64,000 nucleotides of DNA from Escarpia spicata (taxonomy: Eukaryota > Annelida > Polychaeta > Sabellida > Siboglinidae), in contig OZ023206.1 of the NCBI GenBank assembly GCA_963995525.1, forward strand, positions 69,881,085-69,945,084. Reading direction: 5' to 3'. Both the position numbers and the translations under genes were made by a program. The notes under the pieces are model-generated. The model did not search any database. It saw nothing but the letters and a program-made list of their open reading frames with translations, and had not been told where the DNA came from. Shown piece after piece: positions 4,804-23,019 of this stretch. Within the stretch, counting starts at the first letter, position 1; every line of letters starts with the position of its first letter.

Positions 4804-4900
4804 ATGTTCGCGTTCTGCTTCAGTTTCGTGGGAGTCTGGCTCATTCTGCTTCCCGAGGTGGTCGAGTGTTGTTCCCGACGGCGACAATCGGCACAAAATG
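4804..4900 (+). CDS. PLAT gene A exon 1 (signal peptide)
   Basis: The ATG opens a hydrophobic leader (FCFSFVGVWLILLP) followed by a likely cleavage near VEC-C. The donor is AATG|GTAAAG, leaving one base (phase 1). The start is chosen because the same ATG, leader and donor are kept in copy B at 41432. Frame conservation between copies argues that this is coding and not chance. Confidence 0.8.
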
Positions 4901-22616: not shown

Positions 22617-23019
22617 TCAACAATATTGAAGCATATTATGGCATTACTAGGTTTCGCAGCCGACCGATGTTCAATATATTAGTGTATTTTATTACTGTAT
22701 TAGTTGTTTTTGTAGATATCACTATACGTTGTTATCACATTTATGTTGTAGTTATTTGCTAAAATGCAAGTAATGACAATGTCTGTTTTTCTTTCGTAGG
22801 ATCGACACTTACCAGATATCTAGCAAGACGTGCTTCAAAGAACCACCATGCGTCGAGTTGAAAAGCGAGGGTTCCATCCATGTGTTTGCTTGTATCTCAT
22901 ATGACGAATGGAATTGCGATTACGTAGTATTGAAAAATAAAGATAGCGCGAAACTCTGGGAACATAAGTACATATTCAACAGAAAATTCAGTTGCGATAA
23001 GCAAAGAGTATGCCCGTGA
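4804..23019 (+). CDS. PLAT gene A: small secreted cysteine-rich PLAT/LH2-domain protein (3 exons)
   Basis: Exons 4804-4900, 21396-21543 and 22800-23019 join as 97+148+220 nt, giving 154 residues plus TGA. Exon 1 encodes a signal peptide (MFAFCFSFVGVWLILLPEVVEC). Exons 2 and 3 encode one PLAT/LH2 beta-sandwich: CSYTLTVKTSA, then GTDDRIQFRMLDGS, WHTLN, the diagnostic RNQIDTYQI spanning the second junction, WNCDYVVLKN and a tail ending CDKQRVCP. Intron phases are 1 and 2 with GT-AG borders. PLAT domains usually bind lipid or protein partners, often next to a lipase or lipoxygenase; here the domain stands alone after a signal peptide, with about eight cysteines in the mature chain suggesting disulphides. 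A secreted lipid- or membrane-interacting role is inference. Polyadenylation motifs (AATAAA) lie near 23255 and 23345. Intron 1 has absorbed the Gypsy element and many repeats. A tandem copy is at 41432-63626. Confidence 0.8.
5505..5669 (+). repeat. 5' LTR of the Gypsy element
   Basis: It begins TGTAGAGTTACC, ends ACAACACA, and contains AATAAAA near its middle. It matches 9763-9927 except for T/C in AGAATGC and G/A in ACGTGTTT. Confidence 0.95.
5670..5680 (+). other. primer-binding site (tRNA-Leu type)
   Basis: TGGTGGCAGCG directly abuts the 5' LTR. It is complementary to the CGCTGCCACCA 3' end typical of some animal tRNA-Leu. The second Gypsy remnant has the identical 11 bases at 56747-56757. 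Confidence 0.75.
5691..9674 (+). pseudogene. Gypsy gag-pol polyprotein, one in-frame stop in RT
   Basis: The frame starts 11 bp after the primer-binding site and runs 1,327 codons, broken only by a TGA at 7362-7364 inside the reverse transcriptase palm. Domains in order: capsid-like Gag (about residues 1-200); two zinc knuckles, one atypical (CQRCGRQPAHDRQKC, about 232) and one canonical CX2CX4HX4C (CRACGKQGHFQAVC, about 254); a retropepsin segment FKLETGASVSVIS (about 313), where the usual catalytic Asp of DTGA is Glu; RT with HMDD (7464-7475); RNase H (AADASSQGIGAVLL); integrase with an HHCC zinc finger (near 8580-8690) and DDE core (LGMDLFEF, MSDNGPQF, NGEAERAV). Gag and pol share one frame. 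The nonsense codon and the protease substitution make this copy unlikely to be autonomous. Confidence 0.93.
9749..9762 (+). other. polypurine tract of the Gypsy element
   Basis: The purine-rich run TGAGGGGAGG lies immediately before the 3' LTR, in the position expected for plus-strand priming. Confidence 0.75.
9763..9927 (+). repeat. 3' LTR of the Gypsy element
   Basis: 165 bp, the same length as the 5' LTR, with the two differences noted there. It is followed by the target-site duplication GATAG. Confidence 0.95.
9960..10815 (-). mobile_element. decayed LINE fragment (RT and C-terminal region)
   Basis: Minus-strand pieces include GVPRGSVFGPCLFLFYINEIPD near 10860-10780, RLFADTIMYLALKA near 10700, and KTQAYFTFVRPILKNCCTVWDPYTLTQI near 10330, which are RT blocks of a Jockey/CR1-type LINE distinct from the one at 1-3600. 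Several frameshifts are present. The matching interval in copy B (41540-41740) keeps both flanks but lacks the central 680 bp or so. Confidence 0.8.
11090..11610 (-). mobile_element. CR1-like LINE 3' fragment
   Basis: The minus-strand ORF at 11440-11129 reads ETSRLRGDQIEVFKILKDYE, SRLDIRKFSFSQRTVNEWN and NMFKNKIDTYLR, the C-terminal end of the same CR1-like family seen at 1-3600. The adjacent 11450-11600 carries the QRRATK-type segment. It is a short 3' piece, typical of 5'-truncated LINE copies, and is absent from copy B. Confidence 0.85.
11610..12816. other. intron DNA; first part shared with the gene B intron
   Basis: Positions about 11810-12000 match 41950-42110 (for example GGCTGTGAACA and GTTCTCTGCGTGAAAGTG), part of the segmental duplication. 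From about 12100 to 17260 there is no counterpart in copy B. I see no gene here. Confidence 0.5.
12824..13676 (+). mobile_element. non-autonomous DNA transposon (MITE) copy 1, 853 bp
   Basis: The terminal inverted repeats start CAAAAATAGATAAGCGAGC and extend roughly 35 bp. A 7-bp direct repeat, GTAGTAT, flanks it at 12817-12823 and 13677-13683. The interior matches 47037-47789 in the opposite orientation, except for about 100 bp present only here. There is no coding capacity. The superfamily is uncertain: a 7-bp duplication fits hAT, P or Dada-like elements. Confidence 0.8.
13801..14000. other. assembly gap (200 N)
   Basis: Exactly 200 unresolved bases, probably a placeholder-size gap. ORFs crossing it are meaningless. 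Confidence 0.99.
14001..14285 (-). mobile_element. LINE 3' end fragment (RTE/R4-like C-terminus)
   Basis: Minus-strand reading gives RDNRWTSRITTWRP, GKQSRGRPARRWRAKLDEYW and RQIWKRHVEAFAQPR, the C-terminal block of a large class of LINE reverse transcriptases. It ends in a (GAT)n tail against the gap. The fragment may continue into the unresolved bases. Confidence 0.75.
14290..14820. other. non-coding stretch, nothing recognised
   Basis: AT-rich intron DNA of gene A with no exon-like signal or repeat that I can name. Confidence 0.35.
14824..14943 (+). repeat. (TG)n plus (TGCG)n compound microsatellite
   Basis: About 55 bp of alternating TG is followed by TTTG variants and then a GTGC/GTGCG run. 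Open frames across it are repeat artefacts. Confidence 0.98.
15713..15814 (+). promoter_or_regulatory. candidate TATA promoter with short first exon
   Basis: CTATATAAA near 15713 is followed about 80 bp later by ATG AAG ATC GTC CAA G and a good donor (CAAG|GTTAGT), with no upstream ATG after the TATA box. This looks like a core promoter with a first exon ending in phase 1. Possible downstream exons with acceptors near 16700 and 17060 do not give a convincing protein, so no gene is called. It lies in the part of intron 1 missing from copy B. Confidence 0.3.
15830..17260. other. non-coding or unresolved exon region
   Basis: It holds a short signal-peptide-like frame at 16640 (MIVSFPLITFTIVCLIVAVC) that hits a stop 32 codons later, and a good acceptor TTACAATTTCAG near 17061 opening a frame of about 50 codons with a hydrophobic patch (LYAVAVLVYAI). 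These could belong to the promoter at 15713, but the phases do not join cleanly. Confidence 0.3.
17260..18290 (+). repeat. segmental-duplication block A, includes LINE C-terminal remnant
   Basis: It matches about 42225-43550, for example GCGAACGGCGAAATTTGGGA, AAGCATGGTTCCACCCTTAG and GCTCACTGCATTGGCTCCC. Within it, 17880-18140 is a degraded plus-strand LINE C-terminus (LHWLPV, ITYQALS, GIRAL and NSLSAF-type residues). Differences are substitutions plus small indels. The block lies in intron 1 of gene A; its partner lies in intron 1 of gene B. Confidence 0.8.
17724..17842. repeat. nested inverted repeat unique to copy A
   Basis: The outer arms ACTGCGATTCCCTTACATAT and its near-complement ending GGGAATCGCAGT enclose an inner hairpin GTGTCCAACC/GGTTGGACAC. 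Copy B (43028-43100) has the left outer arm and one inner arm only, so the second half arose or survived only here. Confidence 0.75.
18300..18850 (-). pseudogene. pogo/Tigger-like transposase C-terminal remnant
   Basis: Minus-strand reading in shifting frames gives PMDAGITKNMKFHYRYIL (family consensus QPxDAGIIxxxKxxYR) followed by PVWNKLKPETLVNSYKNGI (xWxxIKPETIxNCxxxxG). Frame changes and stops show that it is dead. Just to the right, 18890-18990 carries a repeat with CCGACTTAGGCGAG that recurs at 26660-26775 and 28480-28522. Confidence 0.65.
18890..18990 (+). repeat. pogo/Tigger-associated repeat
   Basis: It contains TGCGATCCGACTTAGGCGAG and ATCTCGGATCAAATGGACC. The reverse complement lies at 26660-26775. 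It is probably a terminal part of the same DNA transposon family. Confidence 0.6.
19385..19790 (-). mobile_element. L2-like LINE 3' end
   Basis: On the minus strand, a C-terminal motif RPLKTHLFR near 19735 is followed by an AT-rich 3' UTR and the terminal stem with CTATAGCGCC near 19415. This matches the tail architecture of the LINE at 26776-28280 and of the fragment at 52075-52215. Confidence 0.6.
19800..20840. other. non-coding stretch, nothing recognised
   Basis: Only short ORFs without splice or domain support. No named repeat identified. Confidence 0.35.
20843..21130 (+). repeat. dispersed repeat, inverted copy at about 43850-44060
   Basis: It shares GGTCAGAGCTAATTTGCATA, CATACCTGAAAACAT and GGACACATAATGTTGATTG with the minus strand of 43850-44060; its right half also matches 63300-63445 next to gene B exon 2. 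It may be a DNA-transposon derivative. The part nearest exon 2 belongs to the gene duplication. Confidence 0.65.
21396..21543 (+). CDS. PLAT gene A exon 2 (N-terminal half of PLAT domain)
   Basis: The acceptor is ATCTGTTGCAG|GA and the donor is ACCA|GTAAAT. The exon is 148 nt and runs from phase 1 to phase 2. It encodes CSYTLTVKTSAKQ, NAGTDDRIQFRMLDGS and RWHTLNTVGHDDLERN, the first PLAT strands including the GTD turn. Copy B at 63479-63626 has exactly the same length and phases. Confidence 0.88.
21590..21616 (+). repeat. short (TG)n tract after exon 2, conserved in position in copy B
   Basis: GTGTGTGTGTGCGTGGGTG follows the exon 2 donor by about 30 bp. A longer version lies in the same place at 63682-63758 in copy B, and both are followed by GCAAA(C/G)AATGAT(A/G)AGATCAATA. 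Confidence 0.85.
22472..22615 (+). repeat. (ACACGC)n then (AC)n microsatellite
   Basis: A compound run in intron 2 of PLAT gene A; reading frames across it are artefacts. Confidence 0.98.
22800..23019 (+). CDS. PLAT gene A exon 3 (C-terminal half of PLAT domain, stop)
   Basis: The acceptor is TTTCTTTCGTAG|G. The first base completes the Gln codon, giving the PLAT strand QIDTYQISSKTC. Then follow CVELKSEGS, a CISYDEWNCDYVVLKN strand pair, KLWEHKYIF and a cysteine-bearing end. TGA is at 23017-23019. This exon is too short and too far from exon 2 to be found without the splice join. Confidence 0.85.

What the first reader, a model, noticed from the sequence alone, without database searches (positions are those of the whole stretch)
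4804..23019. Hidden three-exon gene for a small secreted PLAT/LH2 protein
Three short exons separated by introns of 16.5 kb and 1.26 kb join with matching phases (1, then 2) into a 154-residue protein: a signal peptide plus a stand-alone, cysteine-rich PLAT domain. Stand-alone secreted PLAT proteins are little studied compared with PLAT domains attached to lipases or lipoxygenases, and the extra cysteines point to a disulphide-stabilised extracellular form. The splice borders, phases and domain continuity across both joints are seen directly; the function is inferred.
Basis: partly seen in the sequence, partly recalled or inferred. Interest (0 to 1): 0.85.

Follow-up and report, generated by a model that had tools for sequence, protein, structure and literature searches.

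The report
Tandem family of secreted PLAT-domain proteins
The three scattered exons do form a real animal gene for a small, cysteine-rich, probably secreted protein, and it turns out to be one of a family with some two dozen similar copies in the same genome; what these proteins do is unknown, but binding lipids outside cells is the best guess.

Summary
Exons 4804-4900, 21396-21543 and 22800-23019 join in phases 1 and 2 into a 154-residue frame that matches PLAT, PF01477 (34.3 bits, cut-off 23); exon 2 alone scores 18 bits and exon 3 alone nothing. The finding understates the case. The window holds a second copy (B: 41432-41531, 63479-63626), and the 1.06-Gb host genome holds more: of 58 matches to the joined protein, 55 fall into three exon-shaped classes (12 exon-1, 21 exon-2, 22 exon-3). 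Two compact relatives (about 1.8 and 6 kb) show the same exons, phases, leader ending in CC and mostly the same cysteines. Intron 1 of A is long partly through a Gypsy element inside another insert. Divergent members are under purifying selection; the young A/B/C group shows none, and B seems to have lost exon 3. No Pfam match follows within 10 kb. So: a stand-alone, disulphide-rich, probably secreted PLAT family, most likely binding lipid or membrane outside cells (inferred). Published short single-PLAT proteins are from plants and spider mites (PMC6288829, passages). Expression, disulphides and ligand are untested.

The parts
4632..4803 (+). 5' flank and presumed 5' UTR/promoter of gene A
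   Evidence: Conserved with exon 1 in B (86%) and in two downstream copies (91%)
4804..4900 (+). Exon 1 of gene A: leader ending in CC plus 10 residues; ends in phase 1
   Evidence: the last 22 aligned bases differ from B far more than introns do
4901..21395 (+). Intron 1 of gene A
   Evidence: GT-AG; five blocks colinear with intron 1 of B
4912..9953 (.). Insert 11 bases after the exon-1 donor, flanked by TATAC, with imperfect inverted ends; absent from B
5505..9927 (+). Ty3/Gypsy element nested in that insert; LTRs 98.8% identical, GATAG on both sides
21396..21543 (+). Exon 2 of gene A: first part of the PLAT domain; ends in phase 2
21544..22799 (+). Intron 2 of gene A (1256 bases)
   Evidence: GT-AG
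22800..23019 (+). Exon 3 of gene A: second part of the PLAT domain, six cysteines, stop codon
23258..23352 (+). Possible polyadenylation signals AATAAA at 23258, 23268 and 23347
   Evidence: Motif scan only
41432..41531 (+). Exon 1 of tandem copy B, phase 1
63479..63626 (+). Exon 2 of tandem copy B, phase 2; its exon 3 appears to be deleted beyond the window

Best explanation
Gene A is a real three-exon animal gene. Shown from sequence: three intact exons with conserved joints, a PLAT domain split between exons 2 and 3, a conserved hydrophobic leader ending in CC, and membership of a tandemly expanded family of short, cysteine-rich, stand-alone PLAT proteins. Inferred: the leader is cleaved between the two adjacent cysteines and the protein is exported; the eight mature cysteines form disulphides that hold a PLAT beta-sandwich whose last strand is reduced or replaced; and it binds a lipid or membrane surface outside the cell, perhaps with calcium through its conserved acidic loop residues, without any enzyme domain. 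The long first intron is a by-product of transposon insertion and is spliced out as the short introns of the compact paralogs are.
For: Joined protein over the Pfam cut-off, halves not. Tandem copy B with the same donor, acceptor context, phases and colinear intron blocks. 55 of 58 genome matches cut at the same joints. Compact genes Z and F with the same three exons; 6 of 6 modelled exon 1 in phase 1 and 6 of 6 exon 2 in phase 2. Z, E and F also pass the PLAT cut-off (33.4, 35.9, 37.6 bits). Purifying selection between divergent members: A-Z p 2.4e-4, A-F p 4.9e-9, one-sided. Lipid binding by precedent: lipoxygenase PLAT domains bind membranes with calcium (PMC7436259, passages) and the plant stand-alone PLAT protein PLAFP binds phosphatidic acid (PMC4849433, passages).
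Against: No transcript data. Young A/B/C copies: 2 synonymous against 22 non-synonymous changes, 1 against 11 on the A branch; A-B non-synonymous change equals intron divergence. PLAT match incomplete at the C terminus. The AGTDD and DDLE-type acidic residues are only partly kept in E and F. No ligand or disulphide data; by hydropathy alone the leader is not unusual.
Confidence: 0.75

Rival explanations
1. Gene A is a decaying copy: structurally complete but no longer useful, like its sibling B.
For: A branch 1 synonymous against 11 non-synonymous changes; A-B non-synonymous change equals intron divergence; B seems to have lost exon 3 and none was found for C (part of that stretch is withheld).
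Against: All three exons of A are intact and its PLAT score equals that of Z (34.3 and 33.4 bits). No frameshift between A and B in exons 1 and 2, where the intron rate predicts 2.9 (P of none 0.053). 2:22 does not differ from neutrality (p 0.12) and would also fit diversifying selection.
Confidence: 0.15
2. The protein is secreted but is not a lipid binder: it is a disulphide-locked scaffold for protein or sugar recognition, for instance in defence or reproduction.
For: Cysteine-rich, exported, tandemly expanded families often serve recognition (general knowledge); loops vary much between members; exon 1 tail hypervariable between A and B.
Against: Precedent for PLAT is membrane or lipid contact; no partner known.
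Confidence: 0.3
3. Exons 2 and 3 are real but use another first exon; 4804-4900 is a chance open frame or belongs elsewhere.
For: 16.5-kb intron; a C-type exon 1 in this very cluster has become separated from its exon 2 (155900-158773 in window numbering), so strays exist.
Against: Exon 1 and exon 2 are colinear in A, B and C; donor conserved; compact Z and F have a homologous exon 1 in the same phase.
Confidence: 0.05
4. The PLAT exons are the front of a lipoxygenase or the back of a lipase.
For: Nearest solved sequences are lipoxygenase PLAT domains.
Against: Own leader and stop; no Pfam match at E 0.01 in the + strand frames of 23020-33002 or 11402-21399, though single short exons could be missed; paralogs A, D and E stop after the same CP residues and Z four codons later.
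Confidence: 0.02

Closest known systems
Tetranychid (spider mite) single PLAT domain proteins (PMC6288829, passages)
   Same: Short animal proteins with one PLAT domain, in an expanded family; 16 genes in clusters that are rich in transposons.
   Different: That paper reports no similarity of the mite proteins to proteins of non-tetranychid eukaryotes; the passages seen do not describe leader, cysteines or exons.
PLAT-plant-stress family: Arabidopsis PLAT1, also called PLAFP (PMC4232524 and PMC4849433, passages)
   Same: Stand-alone PLAT with a predicted signal peptide; weak similarity to the related Pfam family ATS3 (25.9 bits, cut-off 27). PLAFP binds phosphatidic acid.
   Different: Below the ATS3 cut-off; plant proteins; a cysteine framework was not mentioned in the passages seen. 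One paper places PLAT1 in the ER, the other does not confirm it.
PLAT domains of 5-lipoxygenase and 11R-lipoxygenase
   Same: Best sequence matches among solved structures (E 1.6e-4 and 7e-4 with the A+B profile); the AGTD and ER..DxY motifs align.
   Different: There the domain is fused to a catalytic domain; A has none, has a leader and is cysteine-rich.

Membership tests
PLAT/LH2 domain (Pfam PF01477) | Curated profile score over the gathering cut-off | tested here: met
   34.3 bits against 23; Z, E and F 33.4, 35.9 and 37.6
PLAT/LH2 domain (Pfam PF01477) | Complete domain to the last strand | tested here: not met
   Match ends at profile position 105 of 117 in A, 90, 106 and 92 in Z, E and F
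PLAT/LH2 domain (Pfam PF01477) | Eight-stranded beta-sandwich fold | not testable with these tools
   Spliced proteins are outside the rule of the structure tool; not sent
Secreted proteins | Cleavable N-terminal signal peptide | tested here: inconclusive
   Hydrophobic leader ending in CC conserved in the exon-1 copies read; 55 of 613 control frames equally hydrophobic
PLAT-plant-stress / ATS3 (PF06232) | Score over the gathering cut-off | tested here: not met
   25.9 bits against 27
Lipoxygenase or lipase | Catalytic domain attached to the PLAT domain | tested here: not met
   No Pfam match at E 0.01 in + strand frames 23020-33002 and 11402-21399; stop codon ends exon 3
Tetranychid single PLAT domain proteins | Sequence similarity to the mite group | not tested
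   Mite sequences not held

The most novel reading that the evidence does not exclude
A lineage-specific animal family of exported, disulphide-armoured PLAT proteins with a reduced sandwich, used as free extracellular lipid- or surface-recognition molecules in defence, mucus or reproduction, in which the young copies around this window diversify under selection while their leader and promoter stay nearly fixed.
Probability: 0.25. Interest if true: 0.62.

Novelty: new variant of a known kind. Interest (0 to 1): 0.42.

Why it matters
The one paper found here that addresses the point (PMC6288829, passages) says that, to its authors' knowledge, short single-PLAT proteins occur only in plants and apparently tetranychid mites. 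A clustered, probably secreted, eight-cysteine family in an animal genome that is not identified here would suggest that the free-standing PLAT fold has been recruited more than once, and gives a compact system for asking what a PLAT domain does without an enzyme. It also shows how transposon-swollen introns can hide members of such families from gene finders.

Tried and rejected
Homologues in 5.8 billion proteins: none with the joined protein (8 candidates, E up to 0.1) or with the A+B alignment (117 candidates, E up to 1). How many animal proteins that set holds is unknown, so this is no evidence of uniqueness. Viral contigs: 2 stretches matched a pattern, none encodes a relative. NCBIfam: nothing. 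Rfam and tRNA scans of the window: nothing. KMT5B methyltransferase hits among solved structures were judged chance; most cover only the C-terminal half. The 14 control genomes without a PLAT match say little, since their kinds are not stated.

An off-by-one gave a frameshifted B; corrected. In one search the exon-3 start of E and the ends of Z and F were a base or so out; corrected. Reading A-B divergence as positive selection was dropped: non-synonymous change equals intron change and B seems to have lost exon 3. The exon 1 first joined to gene E lies in a C-type partial duplicate, so E's exon 1 is uncertain; it is still in alignment A2 and, but its exon-1 figures are not used as evidence. 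A 74-aa frame over the stop of exon 3 was considered as a second product and set aside (no Pfam match; a stop inside it in the copy downstream of B).

Ten literature searches of open-licence PubMed Central text: no animal family of stand-alone secreted PLAT proteins other than the mites showed in the listings. Listings were capped at 10 to 40 rows, and searches matched thousands of papers mostly by their other terms. Papers were seen as passages only.
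Full report
What was claimed and what is there. The three exons lie exactly where stated and join to a 154-residue frame with phases 1 and 2. The joined protein matches Pfam PLAT with 34.3 bits against a cut-off of 23. Exon 2 alone reaches 18 bits and exon 3 alone nothing, so the join itself makes the domain match. By sequence the nearest solved structures are PLAT domains of 5-lipoxygenase, 11R-lipoxygenase and, more weakly, alpha-toxin.

A second copy in the window. 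A translated self-search found exon 1 again at 41432 and exon 2 again at 63481. In this copy B, exon 1 is 41432-41531 (100 bases, phase 1) and exon 2 is 63479-63626 (148 bases, phase 2). The exon-1 donor GTAAAGTAT and the 20 bases before exon 2 are the same in A and B. Of 12 alignments between the two first introns, five of over 150 columns are colinear on the same strand (9960-10117, 10809-11004, 11776-11934, 17319-18258, 20975-21128 in A); one more of 34 bases is too, and the others are inverted or out of order. Exon 1, intron and exon 2 were thus duplicated together, which supports the 16.5-kb join.

Why intron 1 of A is long. B shows the site without the insert: 11 bases after the donor, A carries an insert (4912-9953) flanked by TATAC with imperfect inverted ends, and within it a Ty3/Gypsy element (5505-9927) with LTRs 98.8% identical and GATAG on both sides. 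The donor of A is therefore the ancestral one. The insert makes up 5 kb of the 16.5; B's own intron is 22 kb.

The family. The genome in which the window lies (1.06 Gb, 1097 contigs, no name given) became searchable. PF01477 has 51 matches there at E 1e-3 or better. The joined protein has 58 matches up to E 10; by my count from that table 12 are exon-1-shaped, 21 exon-2-shaped, 22 exon-3-shaped and 3 neither. A second query, F, added three exon-3-type places, making 25. They lie on C2 (69.7-70.1 and 24.0-24.1 Mb), C6, C1, C15 and C10. The tool calls such counts lower bounds, the weakest matches may be chance, and broken copies are included.

Architecture test. Two compact relatives show the exon order plainly: F at C2:24.11 Mb (about 1.8 kb, read whole) and Z at C2:69.81 Mb (about 6 kb; the stretch between its exons 2 and 3 was not fetched). 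Of the six members modelled (A, B, C, E, Z, F), 6 of 6 have exon 1 ending in phase 1 and 6 of 6 have exon 2 ending in phase 2; E's exon 1 is uncertain. Twenty further single-exon loci were read, chosen from the table: 6 of 6 exon 1 have an in-frame phase-1 GT donor, 5 of 5 exon 2 have the expected acceptor and donor phase, 8 of 9 exon 3 have the expected start. Broken among those read: D (exon 2 frame lost), L033, L043 and L056 (stops inside), and B (exon 3).

Cysteines. If the leader is cut between the adjacent cysteines 22 and 23 (rule of thumb, no program), mature A has eight: 23, 34, 93, 99, 113, 121, 147, 153. Six of these eight are invariant in the four-member alignment A2; 99 and 153 are missing in F only. 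Among 16 exon-3 copies read (A, Z, D, E, F, L032, L033, L037-L045), 9 keep all six exon-3 cysteines, 4 (L033, L038, L041, L042) lack only the C121 equivalent, and 3 of one subfamily (F, L032, L040) lack both the C99 and C153 equivalents. Two further exon-3-like hits seen only as alignments were left out; of these the one at 70.07 Mb also lacks C121. The joint loss hints at a C99-C153 bond, but may be one event; loss of C121 without a partner argues against a fully fixed four-bond scheme.

Selection. Between divergent members synonymous change per site exceeds non-synonymous: A-Z dS 0.96, dN 0.44; A-F dS 2.14, dN 0.51, one-sided p 2.4e-4 and 4.9e-9 (synonymous sites near saturation). By exon A-Z gives p 0.016, 0.17 and 0.0017 and A-F 0.096 and 0.012 for exons 1 and 2. 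In all nine exon comparisons the non-synonymous rate is the lower one (for example F/L032, exons 2 and 3 together: 6 synonymous, 3 non-synonymous). The A/B/C group differs: 2 synonymous against 22 non-synonymous changes, 2 ambiguous sites dropped, p 0.12 against neutrality; A-B non-synonymous change equals intron divergence. Downstream of B, pieces of intron 2 and the 3' UTR of A recur joined to each other without the coding part between them, so B seems to have lost exon 3; part of that stretch is withheld, so this is likely rather than proven. None was found for C. Relaxed constraint is the simplest reading; for A neither relaxed nor diversifying evolution can be excluded. The last 22 aligned bases of exon 1 differ between A and B far more than introns do (15 of 22 against 202 of 1505, p 8.5e-9), an excess that depends on the alignment.

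How it most likely works. Shown: gene structure, domain, family, conserved leader and cysteines, no enzyme domain recognised within 10 kb downstream. Inferred: export, disulphides, extracellular lipid or membrane contact. D76 and E79 are invariant in four members, while D51 and D52 are N in E and F. That equivalent residues of 5-lipoxygenase take part in calcium binding is recalled, not computed. Lipoxygenase PLAT domains bind membranes with calcium, though not in all enzymes (PMC7436259, passages), and the plant stand-alone PLAT protein PLAFP binds phosphatidic acid (PMC4849433, passages). I put the lipid reading at about even odds and the gene-and-family reading above nine in ten; the stated 0.75 is for the whole.

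Comparison with the known. Short single-PLAT proteins are described from plants and tetranychid mites, and the mite paper says that to its authors' knowledge only these have them (PMC6288829, passages). The mite genes likewise sit in transposon-rich clusters. Mite sequences could not be compared here. I rate this a new variant of a known kind: the domain is ordinary; a secreted, eight-cysteine, tandem three-exon family is not one I found described, within open-licence papers only.

Noticed in passing
window 4912-9953: Nested insertion: a young Ty3/Gypsy element (LTRs 98.8% identical, GATAG on both sides) inside another insert flanked by TATAC, 11 bases after the exon-1 donor.
   Followed up: partly
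window 23010-23234: A 74-residue frame with a leucine-rich run overlaps the stop of exon 3 in another frame; 93% identical DNA lies downstream of B, with a stop inside.
   Followed up: partly
C2:70036984-70039857 (L019), beside exons at 70056955 and 70057972 (L021): A C-type exon 1 with its intron start is repeated far upstream of unrelated-looking, older exons 2 and 3; either a stray exon or one captured by another gene.
   Followed up: partly
window 28784-29228 and 38159-40425: Two long arrays of 24-base tandem repeats.
   Followed up: no
C9:20269935-20326461 and C13:41621883-42483946 of the own genome: Other dense groups of PLAT matches: many on C9 within 57 kb, as in a many-PLAT protein, and second-half matches on C13 that may be another short-PLAT cluster.
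   Followed up: no
window 45188-46360, 47886-49799 and 32876-33268, minus strand: LINE-type reverse transcriptase and endonuclease frames and a Tc-type transposase fragment.
   Followed up: no
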